Below, piece by piece: positions 56,994-64,000 of a DNA stretch of 64,000 nt. The position numbers and the translations under genes were made by a program. Numbering within the stretch: position 1 is the first letter of the stretch; each line of letters begins with the position of its first letter. This stretch comes from Phycisphaerales bacterium (GTDB lineage Bacteria > Planctomycetota > Phycisphaerae > Sedimentisphaerales > Anaerobacaceae). The notes under the pieces were generated by a model that worked only from the letters and a program-made list of their open reading frames with translations, was not told where the DNA came from and searched no databases. The stretch lies in assembly GCA_003141315.1 (NCBI GenBank), contig PLLP01000008.1, positions 1 to 64,000 on the forward strand. Direction: 5' to 3'.

Positions 56994-57116
56994 TCCCCCA
57001 ATTCCGATAAAAAACTTGACTTTCAAAACATAGATGATATAAGCTTATATTGATCCCGTTGCAAACGGGCAGGAAAACTAAACTCCGCATCTTATGTGGA
57101 CCAATCTAATTTTGTT
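56970..57116. repeat. Copy 1 of a ~150-bp direct repeat with promoter
   Basis: It starts in the last codons of plsC (AACAGCCCTTCTCTTA) and runs through TTGACT (57016-57021) with TATAAG (57038-57043), then CCCGTTGCAAACGGGCAGG and CTCCGCATCTTATGTGG. Copy 2 at 58075-58227 follows the same order with about 80-85% identity by eye. The copies flank the COG4705-like gene. Confidence 0.85.
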
Positions 57117-57155
57117 GCTGGGTGGTATGAAGCAAACAAGAATAGAATAAGAACC

Positions 57156-57956
57156 ATGAACCGTACGACAGAACAAGCTTTAAGCAAAGTCCCCGAAGTA
57201 ACCCTGATATTCTGGATAATCAAAGTCGCTGCTACTACATTGGGCGAAACCGGCGGCGACGCGGTGTCGATGTCGATGAATCTTGGTTATCTGGTTGGTA
57301 CTGCCATTTTTGCGATTATTTTTATTTTTGCAGTTGCCGCCCAGATTAAGGCCAGGAACTTTCATCCCTTCCTGTATTGGACAACGATTATTGCGACAAC
57401 AACAGTTGGCACGACCTTGGCTGATTTCGCTGACCGCTCTCTGGGTATTGGCTATGCCGGCGGAGCAACACTGCTGTTCATTCTGCTCATGGCATCATTG
57501 TCAATCTGGTATTGGTCGCTCGGCTCGGTTTCAGTCGATACCGTAAATTCGCCGGCGGTAGAGATGTTCTATTGGATCACGATTATGTTTTCTCAGACGC
57601 TGGGTACTGCGTTTGGGGATTGGACAGCCGATACGGCTGGTATCGGCTACGGAGGTGGAGCGATTGTCTTCAGTGTTCTTCTGGGATTGGTGGTTGTGGC
57701 CTATTACTGGACAAACATCTCAAGAACGCTGCTTTTCTGGGTGGCCTTCATACTTACCAGACCCCTCGGTGCCGTCGTAGGTGATTTTCTTGATAAGCCA
57801 ATCAGTGCCGGCGGCCTGGCATTAAGTCGCTATTCAGCATCGGCTGCGCTCCTCGTAATCATCATTGCCTGTATTTTGATTTTTCCACAGCGGACGCCCA
57901 GAAGTTCAGGGCCTTCTTATGCCTTAAAAAAACCTCTTGCCGAAGACGAGATTTAG
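57156..57956 (+). CDS. COG4705-like multi-pass membrane protein
   Basis: 266 residues from the ATG at 57156. A GTG at 57096 would lie inside the duplicated leader, whose second copy has no matching start, so I prefer the later codon. It has eight or so membrane helices and four TTLGxxxxD-like repeats (AATTLGETGGDAV, TTTVGTTLADFADRSLG, FSQTLGTAFGDWTAD, LTRPLGAVVGDFLDKP), suggesting an internal duplication. The family is uncharacterised. Transcription probably starts from the TTGACT/TATAAG box in the repeat. Confidence 0.75.
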   Translation: MNRTTEQALSKVPEVTLIFWIIKVAATTLGETGGDAVSMSMNLGYLVGTAIFAIIFIFAVAAQIKARNFHPFLYWTTIIATTTVGTTLADFADRSLGIGYAGGATLLFILLMASLSIWYWSLGSVSVDTVNSPAVEMFYWITIMFSQTLGTAFGDWTADTAGIGYGGGAIVFSVLLGLVVVAYYWTNISRTLLFWVAFILTRPLGAVVGDFLDKPISAGGLALSRYSASAALLVIIIACILIFPQRTPRSSGPSYALKKPLAEDEI

Positions 57957-58258: not shown

Positions 58259-59149
58259 ATGCGATACGATGAAATGCAAGACAACTCAAAAGCCTTTCCC
58301 CTAATGAATGTGAAGAGTTCTGAATACTCTCCCAATAAGTGCGTCTTCCGAAACGATGAATTTGGTGTCTGGCTTTATCAGGCCAATTGTATCGAATTCA
58401 TGGACATGCTGATAAGTAAATACCCCGATGGCAGGTTTGATATGATATTTGCCGACCCTCCTTATTTTCTCTCAAATGGTGGAATTACCTGTCATGCTGG
58501 AAAAATGGTCAAGGTAGATAAAGGCCAATGGGACAAATCAAACGGGCCGGAAATGAATCACGAGTTCAATACAGCATGGCTGTCGAGATGTCAAAAGCTA
58601 TTGACGCCCAATGGAACGCTTTGGGTATCTGGCACCCACCACGTCATTCATTCTGTAGGTTATGCTATGCAGCAGATAGGAATGAAGATTTTGAATGATA
58701 TAACATGGGAAAAACCAAATCCGCCGCCGAATCTTTCGTGTCGCTATTTCACGCATTCGACAGAGACGATTATCTGGGCAGCAAAAAACGAAAAATCCAA
58801 ACATTGCTTCAACTACGACAAGATGCGCGAAATGAATTCAGGCAAGCAGATGAAGTCCGTTTGGACTATGACCGCCCCAAATGGCGACGAAAAAGGATTA
58901 GGAAAACACCCGACGCAAAAACCCGTTCAACTTCTGGAGAGAATCATTTTGGCAAGCACAACTGAAGGCAACTTGGTATTCGATCCGTTCTCTGGAAGTT
59001 CGACGACTGGTGTTGCCGCTGTAAAACTAAGACGAAAATTTGTCGGTTGTGAACTAGAAGCTGAGTTCTTAGCATTATCTTCAAAGCGTCTTAAAATGGC
59101 AATCAAAGAAAGAACATCTTCTCCTGATTTTGTGGAGGTTTCCAGATGA
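58259..59149 (+). CDS. Type II DNA N-methyltransferase (beta class, DPPY type)
   Basis: 296 residues. Catalytic motif IV ADPPYFLS lies near residue 65 and the SAM motif I FDPFSGSSTTGVAAVKL near 245. This order (IV before I) is class beta, as in the HinfI and DpnA families. The DPPY tetrad suggests adenine-N6 methylation. The target is unknown. The gene is AT-rich relative to neighbours and overlaps the nuclease gene by ATGA. Confidence 0.88.
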   Translation: MRYDEMQDNSKAFPLMNVKSSEYSPNKCVFRNDEFGVWLYQANCIEFMDMLISKYPDGRFDMIFADPPYFLSNGGITCHAGKMVKVDKGQWDKSNGPEMNHEFNTAWLSRCQKLLTPNGTLWVSGTHHVIHSVGYAMQQIGMKILNDITWEKPNPPPNLSCRYFTHSTETIIWAAKNEKSKHCFNYDKMREMNSGKQMKSVWTMTAPNGDEKGLGKHPTQKPVQLLERIILASTTEGNLVFDPFSGSSTTGVAAVKLRRKFVGCELEAEFLALSSKRLKMAIKERTSSPDFVEVSR

Positions 59150-59688
59150 AAACAGGCGGTTTGGGCGGCGCTAATACACTCACCGGATTGAACTTTGAAA
59201 GCAAAGTTGACTTTCAGAAACTTCTTGGGAAAATTTCTGGGTATAGCATTGACAAGATTCCTGATAAGGCTGGTATGGGTGTATTCTTTGAAGGCAAATT
59301 GGTCGCCAGATGCTTCAAGAAACACGATTTTTATAGATTTTTGGAAGAGTCTAAAGTTGATTGGCAGAACATGCTTTCTAAAAAACTACTGCCGGATGAT
59401 GCAATGCTCGTCATCATTCGCGAGACTTTGTTCATTATTGAAGTCAAGTATCAACAGGTAGCAGGATCGGTTGACGAGAAATTGCAGACATGTGATTTTA
59501 AGCGGAAGCAGTATTTGAAATTGGTCGCTTCATTGGGATTGAAAGTTGAATATGTCTATGTGCTGAACGACTGGTTCAAAAGACCAGAATACAAAGATGT
59601 ATTAGATTATATACACAGCGTTAATTGTCACTACAGATTCAATGAATTACCTCTCGCGTGGCTTGGTTTACCTACAAAGAAGGCTTAA
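59146..59688 (+). CDS. Putative type II restriction endonuclease (PD-(D/E)xK)
   Basis: 180 residues. PDDAML at Pro83-Asp84-Asp85, then FIIEVKYQ with Glu99-x-Lys101, form the PD-(D/E)xK core, followed by QVAGSVDEKLQTCDFKRKQY. The coupling to a methyltransferase by a 4-bp overlap supports the restriction role. The recognition site is unknown. It is AT-rich like its partner, which suggests acquisition as a unit. Confidence 0.78.
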   Translation: MKTGGLGGANTLTGLNFESKVDFQKLLGKISGYSIDKIPDKAGMGVFFEGKLVARCFKKHDFYRFLEESKVDWQNMLSKKLLPDDAMLVIIRETLFIIEVKYQQVAGSVDEKLQTCDFKRKQYLKLVASLGLKVEYVYVLNDWFKRPEYKDVLDYIHSVNCHYRFNELPLAWLGLPTKKA

Positions 59689-60677: not shown

Positions 60678-62693
60678 TCACTTAAACCCCTTCTTGTCCC
60701 TTACAAGTGGTCGTGCGGTATCCAGTCTTATCGGCAATATCACGTTAGTGACCCCGTTCCACTGCAATCGTCTTTGAATGGCAAAGGCGGCTTCGTTATG
60801 GAGCAGCCTGTGATAAAATTTCTCAAGCCGGAAAGAAAGCTGTCCGGAAAATACCGTAGATTTGTGGAATTCTTTCGATATCTCCAGCGTCAATTCGGAT
60901 GCCTGCTCGACAAGCTCAGTGCCTGTCGCTATTCTGTATTCAGCCGGGAATCCGAGCCTGCGGGCAAGCTCGACGTATTTCTTCAGGGAATCCTCCACGG
61001 CTTTTTTTAATTCCACCAGGCCTTCTTCGCCCTTGAATACGCCCTGGTCTATTACGGCAACGGAAACAAAGACAAAGTTTTTATACATACCCGGGAAGGA
61101 CCGGATAATCGAAAAAAGAGAATGCACCCCGACACCGTTAAAGCCCCCGACCAGCAGTATCGCGGTCATATCGTTTTTATTCACCGGCGATGTATTAATC
61201 GAATCCGATTTCGGCATCTTCATAAGCACTTCATCCAGCTTTTTCAGTTGGGTCTTCACCTTCGAGTAATGGCTGTTGATTATGTAGCAAAGCAAAATAA
61301 GCAGTGAAGTTATAAGAAGAGTAAGCCAGCCTCCTTCTCTGAATTTTTCACAGATTGTTATGGTAAGAATCGTCAGACAGAATATAAGACCTGTCAATTG
61401 AATACAGAGCTGCCGCTTCCATTTAGGAACAATTTTTCTATTTTTTATATAAAATCGCGCCATTCCAAACTCTGACAGCGAGAACGTGATGAAAACATTT
61501 ATTGAGTACATAACCACCAGGGTTGAAATCGAGCCGTGAGTATAAAACAGCACGGCAAGTGCCAATACGCCTATCATCAGAATACCGTTGCGCATCGTAA
61601 GGCGTTCTGAAAATGAGGCGAACCTGTGAGGCAGCCACGAATCAACCGCCATATTTGCCATAACACGCGGAGCATCGATAAAACCTGTCTGTGCACCAAC
61701 CAGAAGCAGCGCACCTTCGGAAAGAATTGTCACCAGAGCTATCCAGTAGCCGAATTGCCAGTTTTGGTATAAGCTTTCGGCAAGAACGGCGTTAAGCGTC
61801 TTTCCGGAAAGAGGCTTTGCTTCAACAAGCAGGTAGCATAAAAAAAGCCCGCCTGCGGTCAGGGCAAGCGATGCAGCCATATACAACATCGTTCTCTTGC
61901 CAAACTGGACTTTAGGTTCTCTGAGAGCCTGAAGACCATTTGAAACGGCCTCTATTCCCGTATAGGTGCCGCCACCCATAGAATACGCCCGCAGAAATAT
62001 AAAAAGAACACCGAAAAATCCCATAGTAGAAAGGTCGCTGGAAAGATTAGATTGGAAATTGTCAGCGACCTGCTTAACCTGGCCTGCGTGACTGAATATG
62101 CCGTAACCTAACAAAAGAATATGTGTGATTAAAAAGATGATAAAGATTGGCGCTAACACTAATATGGACTCTTTTAGTCCTCTAATATTCAGAAGCATCA
62201 GCAATACAATCAAACCCGCTGCGGTTAAAATCTTATACTTGTGATATTCCGACGGCATAAAACTGAACAATGCATCAACGCAGGAAACTATTGAAACGGA
62301 AATGGTGAGAACATAATCGACAATCAGGGCGCAACCGGAGACAACGCCTGCCTTTTCACCAAGCATGTGAGTAGCGACTATGTAACCGCCGCCGCCATGA
62401 GGAAAATGTTCGATGATATTTGCGTATGCATAAGAAATAACCGAGACGGTTAGTGCCGTCGCAATAGCAAGAAATATAGCAAGGTAGACGTGGCTTCCCA
62501 ACGCCTTAAACGCTTCTTCCGGGCCGTATGACGACGAGGAGAGACCATCGGCGCCCAATCCTATCCAGGCAAGCAATGGGATAAGGGCCAGCTTGTGAAA
62601 AATACGCGGGTCTTGAATATCACGCGGAGCGCCGAATATTTTCCTGGAAACTTTTTCAGTAAAACTCAATTTACCGTCGGAATTTGAATTCAT
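60678..62693 (-). CDS. KimA-like APC-superfamily potassium transporter
   Basis: 671 residues. About 12 membrane helices (roughly 30-485) and a cytosolic C-terminal region (about 490-671). Motifs like those of KimA/YdaO are ADGLSSSSYGPEEAF, FPHGGGGYIVATHMLGEKAG, DYVLTISVSIVS, LNIRGLKES and GIEAVSNGLQALREP. KimA proteins are high-affinity K+ importers inhibited by c-di-AMP. The presence of a c-di-AMP riboswitch in its 5' leader supports the K+ assignment over an amino-acid carrier. An amino-acid permease remains possible. Confidence 0.82.
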   Translation of the reverse strand: MNSNSDGKLSFTEKVSRKIFGAPRDIQDPRIFHKLALIPLLAWIGLGADGLSSSSYGPEEAFKALGSHVYLAIFLAIATALTVSVISYAYANIIEHFPHGGGGYIVATHMLGEKAGVVSGCALIVDYVLTISVSIVSCVDALFSFMPSEYHKYKILTAAGLIVLLMLLNIRGLKESILVLAPIFIIFLITHILLLGYGIFSHAGQVKQVADNFQSNLSSDLSTMGFFGVLFIFLRAYSMGGGTYTGIEAVSNGLQALREPKVQFGKRTMLYMAASLALTAGGLFLCYLLVEAKPLSGKTLNAVLAESLYQNWQFGYWIALVTILSEGALLLVGAQTGFIDAPRVMANMAVDSWLPHRFASFSERLTMRNGILMIGVLALAVLFYTHGSISTLVVMYSINVFITFSLSEFGMARFYIKNRKIVPKWKRQLCIQLTGLIFCLTILTITICEKFREGGWLTLLITSLLILLCYIINSHYSKVKTQLKKLDEVLMKMPKSDSINTSPVNKNDMTAILLVGGFNGVGVHSLFSIIRSFPGMYKNFVFVSVAVIDQGVFKGEEGLVELKKAVEDSLKKYVELARRLGFPAEYRIATGTELVEQASELTLEISKEFHKSTVFSGQLSFRLEKFYHRLLHNEAAFAIQRRLQWNGVTNVILPIRLDTARPLVRDKKGFK

Positions 62694-62725: not shown

Positions 62726-62751
62726 AAAAAAAACTGCCGGCAGAGCAGTTT
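62726..62751 (-). terminator. Riboswitch-controlled terminator with a competing antiterminator
   Basis: On the minus strand AAACTGC (62745-62751) and GCAGTTT (62731-62737) form a 7-bp stem followed by a T-run from the A-tract at 62726-62733. AGAGCA (62765-62770) can instead pair with TGCTCT (62742-62747), which overlaps the terminator stem, giving an antiterminator arrangement. Confidence 0.75.
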
Positions 62752-62773
62752 CTTTAGTATGCGATGCTCTCCC

Positions 62774-62893
62774 AAACGCCTGCGAGGTTAGCTGACGGGC
62801 TCAAGCCTGGAAGTGCCTTATCCCCTGCGGGAATTCGCCCCATAAGCTCGCGTCCCCCGTATCCGTAAATTAAACGGATTTCGGCAACATTAT
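62774..62893 (-). ncRNA. ydaO/yuaA-type c-di-AMP riboswitch
   Basis: The transcript reads TTGCCGAAATCCG, then ACGGGGGACGC, GGGGCGAATTC, GGGGATAAGGCAC, GAGCCCGTCAGCTAACCTCG and AGGCGT. These match the conserved blocks of the ydaO aptamer in order (GCCGAAUCCG...CGGxGGA...GGGGxxAAUC...GGGAUA...CCGxCAGCUAACCUCGxAGGC). It binds c-di-AMP and normally turns off K+ and osmolyte genes at high ligand. Next is the terminator, then the kimA-like gene at 62693. An ORF on this strand (62754-63056) is only a shadow of the RNA. Confidence 0.88.
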
Positions 62894-62953
62894 TTCCCAT
62901 ATTTACTGAATCAGAATTCTCCATTTCACAATTCTGCATCAAATTTCGATGCC

Positions 62954-62981
62954 ATACTACGCAATTCGCGTAGAAAAGCAA
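62954..62981 (-). promoter_or_regulatory. Candidate promoter with operator-like dyad upstream of the riboswitch
   Basis: TTGCTT (62976-62981) and TAGTAT (62954-62959) are 16 bp apart. Inside lies a dyad CTACGC-AATTC-GCGTAG (62957-62973) that could bind a regulator. The leader would be about 250 bases to the ATG. Confidence 0.45.
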
Positions 62982-63138
62982 TATATTTCTCACCCCGCCG
63001 CTGATAGGAGGCAATTCAAATATGCCCCGCAAAAATAAAATCAAACCGGACGGCACTATCCAGGACAGACAAAAAAATATTGTGCATTTTTCCCGCCTTT
63101 ATGCTAAAATGGACATTTGGTTAAAATGGGAAAATCTT

Positions 63139-64000
63139 ATGAGGCAGATACAAAGCCCGAACATAGCACAGCTCTTAATGCAAATGCATTTTGTGCCGGT
63201 CGCAAAACGACACAGGCAGCTGGCAGAGGCGGAGAAGCTGCTCGCAATCGTCGAGAAGAATAAAGAATATCCCTACGAGTTTGTCTGCTATCGCATCACA
63301 GGATACCTGCCGAAAACCAGCACCATCAAAGAGGTCATAAAGGGAGACCTGCTCGCTGAAGACCTGAGGCTTTTCATATCGAAACTGAGCGGCCAAATAG
63401 CGGAGCCCATCGTCAATCTGAAGGAGAAGATTTATACGATTGAGCAGCTCGCTGCCGAATTGTCGGTCACCACAAAAACAATAAACCGCTGGCGAAAAAA
63501 AGGACTCGTCGCAAAAAAATTCGTTTTCGAAGCCGGACAAAAAAAACTCGGGATAACCCAGTCCGCTCTCGATAAATTTATGGAGGCAAATCCGAAACTC
63601 TCAAAAAAAACGCAACGGTTCAAAAGGCTTACCGCGGATGAAAAAAGACAAATAATCAAAATCGCATCGAAGCTGGCAAAAAAAGCCGGCCTGAGCCTTT
63701 ATCAGATAATCGAGCAGACCGCAAAATTAACCGGCAGAAGTCACGAGACCATCAGGTACACGCTGCTGAAATATCAGCAGGCGCACCCCGACCGCATTAT
63801 CGGCAGAGGACGCGGCATTATCGGCACTGACCAGGCAGCGGAAATCTACAAACAATTCAAGGAAGGGGAAAAAGTCAAAAGGCTCATAGAAAAATCCGGT
63901 CGAAGCAAAAGCACATTGTACCGCCTTATAAAAATGAAAAGGGCAAGAACCCTGCTCGGCCAGAAAGTCGAATACATATTCAGCGATGAATTTACGCAGG
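63139..64000 (+). CDS. Sigma-70-like transcription factor with HTH domains (3' end outside window)
   Basis: At least 287 residues, open at the right edge. The ATG at 63139 begins MRQIQSPNIAQLLMQM. Residues ~95-125 (YTIEQLAAELSVTTKTINRWRKKG) form a helix-turn-helix, with a second at about 195-215 (LTGRSHETIRYTLLKYQQ) and a third near 262-280 (LIEKSGRSKSTLYRLIK). This pattern resembles N-terminal regions I recall in planctomycete-specific sigma-70 family factors; the sigma core would be downstream of the window. Alternatively a multi-HTH regulator. A weak promoter-like TTGTGC (63080) and TAAAAT (63105) precede it. Confidence 0.55.
   Translation, partial: MRQIQSPNIAQLLMQMHFVPVAKRHRQLAEAEKLLAIVEKNKEYPYEFVCYRITGYLPKTSTIKEVIKGDLLAEDLRLFISKLSGQIAEPIVNLKEKIYTIEQLAAELSVTTKTINRWRKKGLVAKKFVFEAGQKKLGITQSALDKFMEANPKLSKKTQRFKRLTADEKRQIIKIASKLAKKAGLSLYQIIEQTAKLTGRSHETIRYTLLKYQQAHPDRIIGRGRGIIGTDQAAEIYKQFKEGEKVKRLIEKSGRSKSTLYRLIKMKRARTLLGQKVEYIFSDEFTQ

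What the first reader, a model, noticed from the sequence alone, without database searches (positions are those of the whole stretch)
62726..62893. c-di-AMP riboswitch controlling a KimA-like potassium transporter
Seen: ydaO aptamer blocks in correct order on the minus strand, an intrinsic terminator, a competing antiterminator, and a KimA-like ORF directly downstream. Known: c-di-AMP shuts down K+ uptake via ydaO riboswitches mainly in Firmicutes and some other phyla. A planctomycete example would extend the range and imply a c-di-AMP cyclase elsewhere in the genome.
Basis: partly seen in the sequence, partly recalled or inferred. Interest (0 to 1): 0.72.

Follow-up and report, generated by a model that had tools for sequence, protein, structure and literature searches.

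The report
c-di-AMP riboswitch before potassium importer
A planctomycete-type bacterium carries a standard RNA switch for the signal molecule c-di-AMP in front of a potassium importer gene, and a second copy in front of its other potassium pump; the switch itself is a known kind, but its use on the Kdp pump outside Bacillus-type bacteria, beside a stripped-down KdpD protein, is a useful extension.

Summary
Rfam RF00379 matches window 62762-62896 (-) over its full length: 82.1 bits against a gathering score of 38, E 1.5e-17. A terminator follows at 62755-62727 and a 671-aa KimA homologue at 62693-60678 (PDB 6s3k, E 4.3e-62). The genome also has a PgpH-like hydrolase and a second riboswitch before kdpFABC. 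TrkH, TrkA_C and Kup were not found, so both K+ importers recognised here carry the switch. The element is not rare: 46 of 392 genomes sampled from the phylum, 23 of 161 in the order. Beyond the finding: 7 of 7 riboswitch-led kdp loci of the order encode a KdpD without kinase core, while the one kdp locus in which no switch was found has full KdpD plus KdpE. A 2019 paper called riboswitch-led kdp restricted to Bacillales. Ligand binding and direction of switching are inferred from the family, not shown.

The parts
62762..62896 (-). c-di-AMP (ydaO/yuaA) riboswitch aptamer
   Evidence: Rfam RF00379, 82.1 bits, full model, E 1.5e-17
62808..62813 (-). 5' strand of the aptamer pseudoknot (loop CUUCCA)
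   Evidence: pairs with 62774-62769; helix 8: 94.0% of cells paired, 6 of 6 pairs with a change on both sides across 29 aptamers
62769..62774 (-). 3' strand of the pseudoknot (UGGGAG), also part of the possible antiterminator
62765..62773 (-). possible antiterminator, 5' side (GGGAGAGCA), pairs with 62747-62739
   Evidence: duplex -14.5 kcal/mol, 1.4% of 500 shuffles as low; inference
62727..62755 (-). intrinsic terminator hairpin with U-run
   Evidence: consensus scan, own terminator scan, fold
60678..62693 (-). KimA-like K+/H+ importer gene, 671 aa, the regulated gene
   Evidence: PDB KimA 6s3k E 4.3e-62; AA_permease_2 76.2 bits; transport residues kept

Best explanation
It is a genuine c-di-AMP riboswitch of the ydaO/yuaA class that turns kimA off by early transcription termination. 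Without c-di-AMP the 3' tail of the aptamer (GGGAGAGCA) is free to pair with the upstream arm of the terminator, so polymerase reads into kimA and K+ is imported. When K+ is plentiful the CdaA cyclase raises c-di-AMP; the ligand locks P1 and the pseudoknot, which occupies the same 3' tail, the terminator forms and kimA is not transcribed. A second aptamer does the same for kdpFABC. SHOWN by computation: aptamer identity, pseudoknot covariation, terminator, gene identities, cyclase and hydrolase genes. INFERRED: ligand binding, direction of the switch, the antiterminator pairing, and that c-di-AMP follows K+ in this organism.
For: RF00379 at 82.1 bits and a second copy at 83.1 bits. Helices plus pseudoknot: 93.9% of 904 cells paired against 80.7% in shuffles, 21 of 32 pairs with changes on both sides. 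Terminator in both own copies, and in 18 of 59 loci against 1.5 expected from mononucleotide shuffles. KimA identity and 11 of 14 checked residues kept. KdpA at 566 bits, with KdpB-, KdpC- and KdpD-like genes, follows the second copy. CdaA equivalog model TIGR00159 199.2 bits against cut-off 188.8. PgpH-like 7TM-HD protein 69.7 bits against 29.4. 46 of 59 riboswitch loci of the phylum have a K+ transporter downstream, most assigned by clustering. 22 of 23 riboswitch genomes of the order have a DAC domain.
Against: The cyclase has D-M-A in place of the usual D-G-A motif, so its activity is not certain, although 19 of 20 DAC domains sampled from the order lack that glycine too and a G73A mutant of M. 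tuberculosis DacA stayed active (PMC3328451, passages). One riboswitch genome, G514 (84% complete), shows no DAC domain. No sigma-70-type promoter was found upstream of the aptamer. Terminators are missing by this scan in 41 of 59 loci, so part of the phylum probably uses another expression platform. The antiterminator pairing is below 5% of shuffles in only 4 of 13 loci tested.
Confidence: 0.87

Rival explanations
1. The aptamer is a true ydaO-class RNA but acts mainly on translation or as an ON switch, the hairpin being incidental.
For: 41 of 59 related loci show no terminator by the same scan; no antiterminator is needed for a translational switch.
Against: Both copies of this genome have a hairpin with a U-run 11-15 nt after the aptamer, and 33 nt separate the hairpin from the kimA start. 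kdp and kimA of B. thuringiensis are described as down-regulated by c-di-AMP-promoted termination (PMC6488665, passages).
Confidence: 0.09
2. A decayed aptamer: the RNA fold is inherited but no longer bound or used, since the cyclase is non-canonical.
For: D-M-A instead of D-G-A in the cyclase.
Against: Full-length match far over threshold, 27 columns invariant over 29 aptamers including this one, strong covariation, and two copies 82% identical in front of two different K+ importers.
Confidence: 0.03
3. Chance similarity: not a riboswitch.
For: None found.
Against: E 1.5e-17 over 64 kb and 4227 families; gene context as expected for the class.
Confidence: 0.01

Closest known systems
c-di-AMP riboswitch of kimA (ydaO), Bacillus subtilis
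   Same: Same Rfam family (RF00379 rings in B. subtilis in the control), same gene family downstream; termination as the mode is from PMC6488665 and recall.
   Different: Other phylum; terminator sequence and the 3' tail/terminator pairing are its own.
c-di-AMP riboswitch of kdpFABC, Bacillus thuringiensis BMB171 (PMC6488665)
   Same: Second copy in this genome leads kdpFABC; the adjacent KdpD lacks its kinase core and no KdpE was seen beside it.
   Different: Here KdpD keeps KdpD-N, Usp, the DUF4118 membrane part and GAF (659-726 aa); in BMB171 it is 365 aa, N-terminal part only. That paper says the arrangement seems restricted to Bacillales.
HK-less KdpD of Deinococcus geothermalis, a c-di-AMP-stimulated serine kinase acting on KdpB (PMC11018627)
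   Same: Walker A G-X5-GKT in the N-terminal domain and the TGES motif of KdpB are present; Usp domain present.
   Different: D. geothermalis KdpD is the short KdpD-Usp form; the form here keeps the membrane and GAF part. Kinase activity and c-di-AMP binding untested.
KimA of B. subtilis (6s3k, 8b70, 8b71)
   Same: Eleven of 14 checked residues identical; His579 and Asn580 of the c-di-AMP site read H and N in the second, weak alignment block.
   Different: Arg337 is His; Gln581 is Glu and Ser582 is Ala in that weak block, so direct c-di-AMP inhibition of this KimA is uncertain.

Membership tests
RF00379 c-di-AMP (ydaO/yuaA) riboswitch | Covariance-model score over the curated gathering score, full length | tested here: met
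   82.1 bits against 38, positions 1-134
RF00379 c-di-AMP (ydaO/yuaA) riboswitch | Helices and pseudoknot kept by compensatory change among relatives | tested here: met
   29 aptamers hand-picked from the 59 loci in hand; 21 of 32 pairs with a change on both sides, 0 of 500 shuffles as high
RF00379 c-di-AMP (ydaO/yuaA) riboswitch | Binds c-di-AMP selectively | not testable with these tools
   needs probing or ITC
RF00379 c-di-AMP (ydaO/yuaA) riboswitch | Lies in the leader of a gene of K+, osmotic or wall function | tested here: met
   kimA 68 nt after the aptamer; KimA match
RF00379 c-di-AMP (ydaO/yuaA) riboswitch | Genome can make c-di-AMP (diadenylate cyclase present) | tested here: met
   PF02457 133.3 bits; TIGR00159 over cut-off; motif D-M-A, not D-G-A
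Transcription-terminating expression platform | Terminator and a mutually exclusive antiterminator | tested here: inconclusive
   terminator met; antiterminator pairing plausible only
KimA (KUP superfamily) K+/H+ symporter | Homology to KimA and its K+-binding residues | tested here: met
   E 4.3e-62; D36, Y43, T121, T230, E233, Y377 identical
CdaA diadenylate cyclase | Equivalog score and RHR motif | tested here: met
CdaA diadenylate cyclase | DGA motif | tested here: not met
   reads DMA; 19 of 20 sampled DACs of the order also lack the glycine
PgpH c-di-AMP phosphodiesterase | 7TM-HD and HD domains | tested here: met
   PF07698 69.7 and PF01966 63 bits; the extracellular 7TMR-HDED domain (name recalled) was not among the matches
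Full KdpD sensor kinase (NF007793) | Score over curated cut-off; HisKA and HATPase domains | tested here: not met
   686.2 against 1123 bits; neither domain found
KdpD_non_kinase (NF038185) | Score over curated cut-off | tested here: not met
   380.7 against 550 bits: it looks like an HK-less KdpD but is not filed in that model

The most novel reading that the evidence does not exclude
[quoted passage not shown] All K+ import of the organism (KimA and Kdp) would then answer to c-di-AMP at the RNA level and again at the protein level, with a cyclase lineage that uses D-M-A instead of D-G-A.
Probability: 0.38. Interest if true: 0.6.

Novelty: new member of a known kind. Interest (0 to 1): 0.42.

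Why it matters
It shows a complete c-di-AMP/K+ circuit (cyclase, hydrolase, two riboswitches, KimA and Kdp) in a bacterium far from the Firmicutes, and gives a second, phylogenetically separate set of cases in which a kdp riboswitch goes with loss of the KdpD kinase core. [quoted passage not shown] The statement that riboswitch-led kdp operons seem restricted to Bacillales would need revising.

Tried and rejected
Chance or a decoy RNA: rejected. A genome without c-di-AMP synthesis: rejected.

A co-transferred riboswitch-KimA cassette: considered because the window's KimA groups (99% SH-aLRT, quick tree) with a Phycisphaerales copy and then with Spirochaetota and Bacteroidota rows, not with the 14-row clade that holds KimA-like proteins of 13 genomes of its own order. 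But the aptamer is most like the kdp aptamer of its own genome (82%), then a kdp aptamer of the same family (80%), then the KimA aptamer of the nearest KimA (75%). Aptamer and gene do not tell one story, so I do not claim a cassette. The tree is the tool's quick method with long branches flagged.

Antiterminator across loci: 13 of the 18 loci with a terminator-like hairpin were given to the test (left out: L029, L030, L049, L052, L058). Fractions of shuffles as low: window 0.014, L035 0.032, L042 0.044, L036 0.046, L046 0.052, L001 0.066, L045 0.114, L040 0.144, L038 0.222, L060 0.416, L047 0.458, L050 0.510, L053 0.656 (for L053 the script set the tail wrongly). Suggestive for the window, not a general result.

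Literature: Nelson 2013, Block 2010 and a 2020 NAR review are not held, so I cannot say whether planctomycete ydaO RNAs were listed there. Searches for c-di-AMP riboswitches with Planctomycetes, planctomycet or Planctomycetota listed no paper on them; one search showed 30 of 107 and one search showed 15 of 239 papers.

Not done: response regulators elsewhere in the genome were not searched, so 'no KdpE' means none seen beside kdpD; K+ channels and GdpP were not searched; no structure was predicted.

Full report
OBSERVATION. The whole window was scanned against Rfam 15. One family reaches its gathering score: RF00379, c-di-AMP riboswitch, at 62762-62896 on the minus strand, 82.1 bits against 38, full model, E 1.5e-17. 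A terminator-like hairpin with a U-run follows at 62755-62727 (-12.8 kcal/mol with a few flanking bases). The next gene on that strand is a 671-aa ORF, 62693-60678. Its only solved relative by sequence at E <= 0.001 is the K+ transporter KimA (6s3k, E 4.3e-62); Pfam places it in the amino-acid permease group. Of 14 KimA residues lining the K+ path or contacting c-di-AMP, 11 are identical (D36, Y43, D117, Y118, T121, S125, T230, E233, N237, T317, Y377) and 3 differ (S320I, Q324R, R337H) (roles from passages of PMC6994465 and PMC10284832).

ORGANISM. The genome (G000, 2.35 Mb, 25 contigs, 96.6% complete) is unnamed. A genome of the same family, G471, has a KimA identical in the tree, and an identical aptamer, to those of a record titled uncultured Phycisphaerales bacterium, so a planctomycete of the Phycisphaerae side is the likely reading.

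THE CIRCUIT IN THE SAME GENOME. A second RF00379 match lies at C11:58887-59022, 83.1 bits. Behind it come a short membrane ORF, a KdpF-like peptide (named by eye), KdpA (566 bits), a P-type ATPase in the KdpB position, KdpC and a KdpD-like protein. One DAC domain is found, at C18:111599-111955; the protein passes the CdaA equivalog cut-off, matches solved CdaA structures, and is followed directly by an ORF in the CdaR/YbbR position that no Pfam or NCBIfam model matched (the name is by position and recall). A PgpH-like 7TM-HD protein lies on C12 beside a PhoH-like gene. TrkH, TrkA_C and Kup (K_trans) were each sought in the genome and not found, while the same searches rang in 11, 13 and 6 of 14 control genomes. 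So the two K+ importers recognised here both have a c-di-AMP riboswitch. The assembly is a draft, and K+ channels were not sought.

THE RNA. Twenty-nine aptamers, hand-picked from the 59 loci in hand, were aligned. With the Rfam helices plus the pseudoknot between the loop CUUCCA and the tail UGGGAG, 93.9% of 904 cells pair (shuffles 80.7%), and 21 of 32 pairs show changes on both sides (0 of 500 shuffles as high); the pseudoknot helix alone has 94.0% of cells paired and 6 of 6 pairs with changes on both sides. The tail of the pseudoknot continues into GGGAGAGCA, which can pair with UGCUCUGCC in the upstream arm and loop of the terminator (-14.5 kcal/mol; 1.4% of 500 shuffled arms as low). Pseudoknot and this pairing exclude each other, which gives a simple OFF switch: ligand holds the pseudoknot, the terminator forms. 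The pairing test was made after seeing the sequence, and in the other 12 loci tested the fraction was 0.032 to 0.656, so this step is inference. The lowest-energy fold without constraints forms the terminator and not the pseudoknot, which that program cannot draw.

RELATIVES. RF00379 is over its cut-off in 46 of 392 genomes sampled from the phylum and 23 of 161 of the order, with Infernal's stricter filters in both. For 59 loci the gene downstream was examined: 23 TrkH (21 by clustering, of which L015 and L026 were scanned, plus L008 and L016 scanned), 16 in the KimA/KUP cluster, 7 in the KdpA cluster, 3 histidine-kinase-like, 2 Band_7-like, 1 PTS-EIIA/P-type ATPase, 1 glycosidase-like, 1 without a family, and 5 without a clear gene. 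That is 46 of 59 with a K+ transporter. Of the 23 riboswitch genomes of the order 22 have a DAC domain; the miss is G514, 84% complete; over the whole order it is 145 of 161. Terminator-like hairpins follow 18 of 59 aptamers (1.5 expected); the other 41 must work otherwise or have hairpins the scan misses. In the KimA search of genome contigs, 22 of the 80 kept loci have the riboswitch 69-252 nt upstream of the match; one of them is the Phycisphaerales record, the others bear Spirochaetota, Bacteroidota-side, deltaproteobacterial or uncertain names. Some loci hold little upstream DNA, so this is a lower bound.

KDP AND KDPD. Ten genomes of the order have a KdpD over the Pfam cut-off. In seven (G000, G539, G541, G417, G414, G415, G470; four genera) kdpA is led by the riboswitch; in all seven KdpD is 659-726 aa and no HisKA or HATPase domain is found. 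No gene of the KdpE type (receiver plus Trans_reg_C) was seen beside it in the stretches read, but not every ORF there was scanned. Against a clean picture, G470 has a receiver-HTH_17 protein and an HDOD-histidine kinase behind kdpD, and G541 a GAF-sigma-54 activator; these could still be regulators of kdp. The phospho-acceptor pattern H-[DE]-L-[RK]-TPL was absent from 8 of 8 other stripped KdpDs tested and present in the full one; the own KdpD reads SLEL at that place. In G412 no RF00379 match was found in the 16 kb holding kdp even at E <= 1, and there KdpD is 895 aa with HisKA and HATPase_c and lies beside a receiver-Trans_reg_C regulator. In G437 and G497 KdpD is stripped too, but the kdp leader is off the contig, so they say nothing on the riboswitch. 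Three of the seven are one genus and two another, so independent cases are about four, and there is one contrasting case. PMC6488665 (section 11 read; passages) reports 12 species with riboswitch-led kdp, all with truncated KdpD, exclusive of KdpDE, and says the arrangement seems restricted to Bacillales; PMC11018627 (passages) names Bacillota for the riboswitch and shows that an HK-less KdpD can be a c-di-AMP-stimulated serine kinase on KdpB. Walker A (10 of 10 KdpDs) and the KdpB TGES motif (own genome) are kept. The pattern therefore appears in a second phylum, with KdpD cut at a different place.

A CAVEAT IN THE CYCLASE. The own CdaA reads HDMA where solved relatives read HDGA. Of 20 DAC domains fetched from the order (12 from riboswitch genomes, 8 from others), 19 lack the glycine (DMA, DLA, DMG or DMS) and 1 has DGA. 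The G73A mutant of M. tuberculosis DacA kept activity (PMC3328451, passages), so activity is likely but unproved.

EVOLUTION. In a quick tree of 99 KimA-like proteins the window row sits with the Phycisphaerales copy and then with Spirochaetota and Bacteroidota rows, away from the clade holding most KimA-like proteins of its own order; the riboswitch label needs 13 changes against 24.6 in shuffles. The two aptamers of the genome are nearest to each other. Lateral gain of this kimA is possible; co-transfer with the aptamer is not shown.

VERDICT. As a riboswitch it is a new member of a known kind. The added value is the complete circuit in one genome and the repeat, outside Bacillales, of the link between a kdp riboswitch and a KdpD without kinase core.

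Noticed in passing
L003:1126-1986 (own CdaA) and L199-L218: CdaA-type cyclases of the order carry D-M-A, D-L-A, D-M-G or D-M-S in place of D-G-A in 19 of 20 sampled domains.
   Followed up: partly
window 62950-62980: Inverted repeat (13-nt arms, 77% complementary, 5 nt apart) between the aptamer and the divergent gene at 63022, where a promoter or operator would lie.
   Followed up: no
window 63022-63999 (+): Divergent ORF running off the window with helix-turn-helix/MerR-like domains.
   Followed up: no
window 58259-59688 (+): DNA methylase (type II-like) with a short ORF behind it that weakly resembles a PD-(D/E)XK nuclease (below the cut-off): a possible restriction-modification pair.
   Followed up: partly
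L062, L072-L091, L111-L127 and others: c-di-AMP riboswitch upstream of KimA-like genes in Spirochaetota, Bacteroidota-side and deltaproteobacterial (incl. Geobacter) records; 22 of 80 loci in all, the Phycisphaerales one included.
   Followed up: partly
L067:14-151 and 2352-2489; L084 and L119 near 5086: A second RF00379 copy before or after the kimA-like gene within the same few kb.
   Followed up: no
L042:1837-3138: Riboswitch upstream of a protein that fuses a PTS EIIA domain to a P-type cation ATPase.
   Followed up: no
L004, L031; L029, L044, L046: RF00379 upstream of Band_7/SPFH-like proteins and of HAMP-PAS kinase-like proteins, gene contexts outside plain K+ import.
   Followed up: no
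L141 near 1085-1267: Extra 28-aa membrane ORF between the riboswitch and the KdpF-like peptide of the kdp operon.
   Followed up: no
window 57096-57956 (+): Membrane protein with four DUF347 repeats.
   Followed up: no
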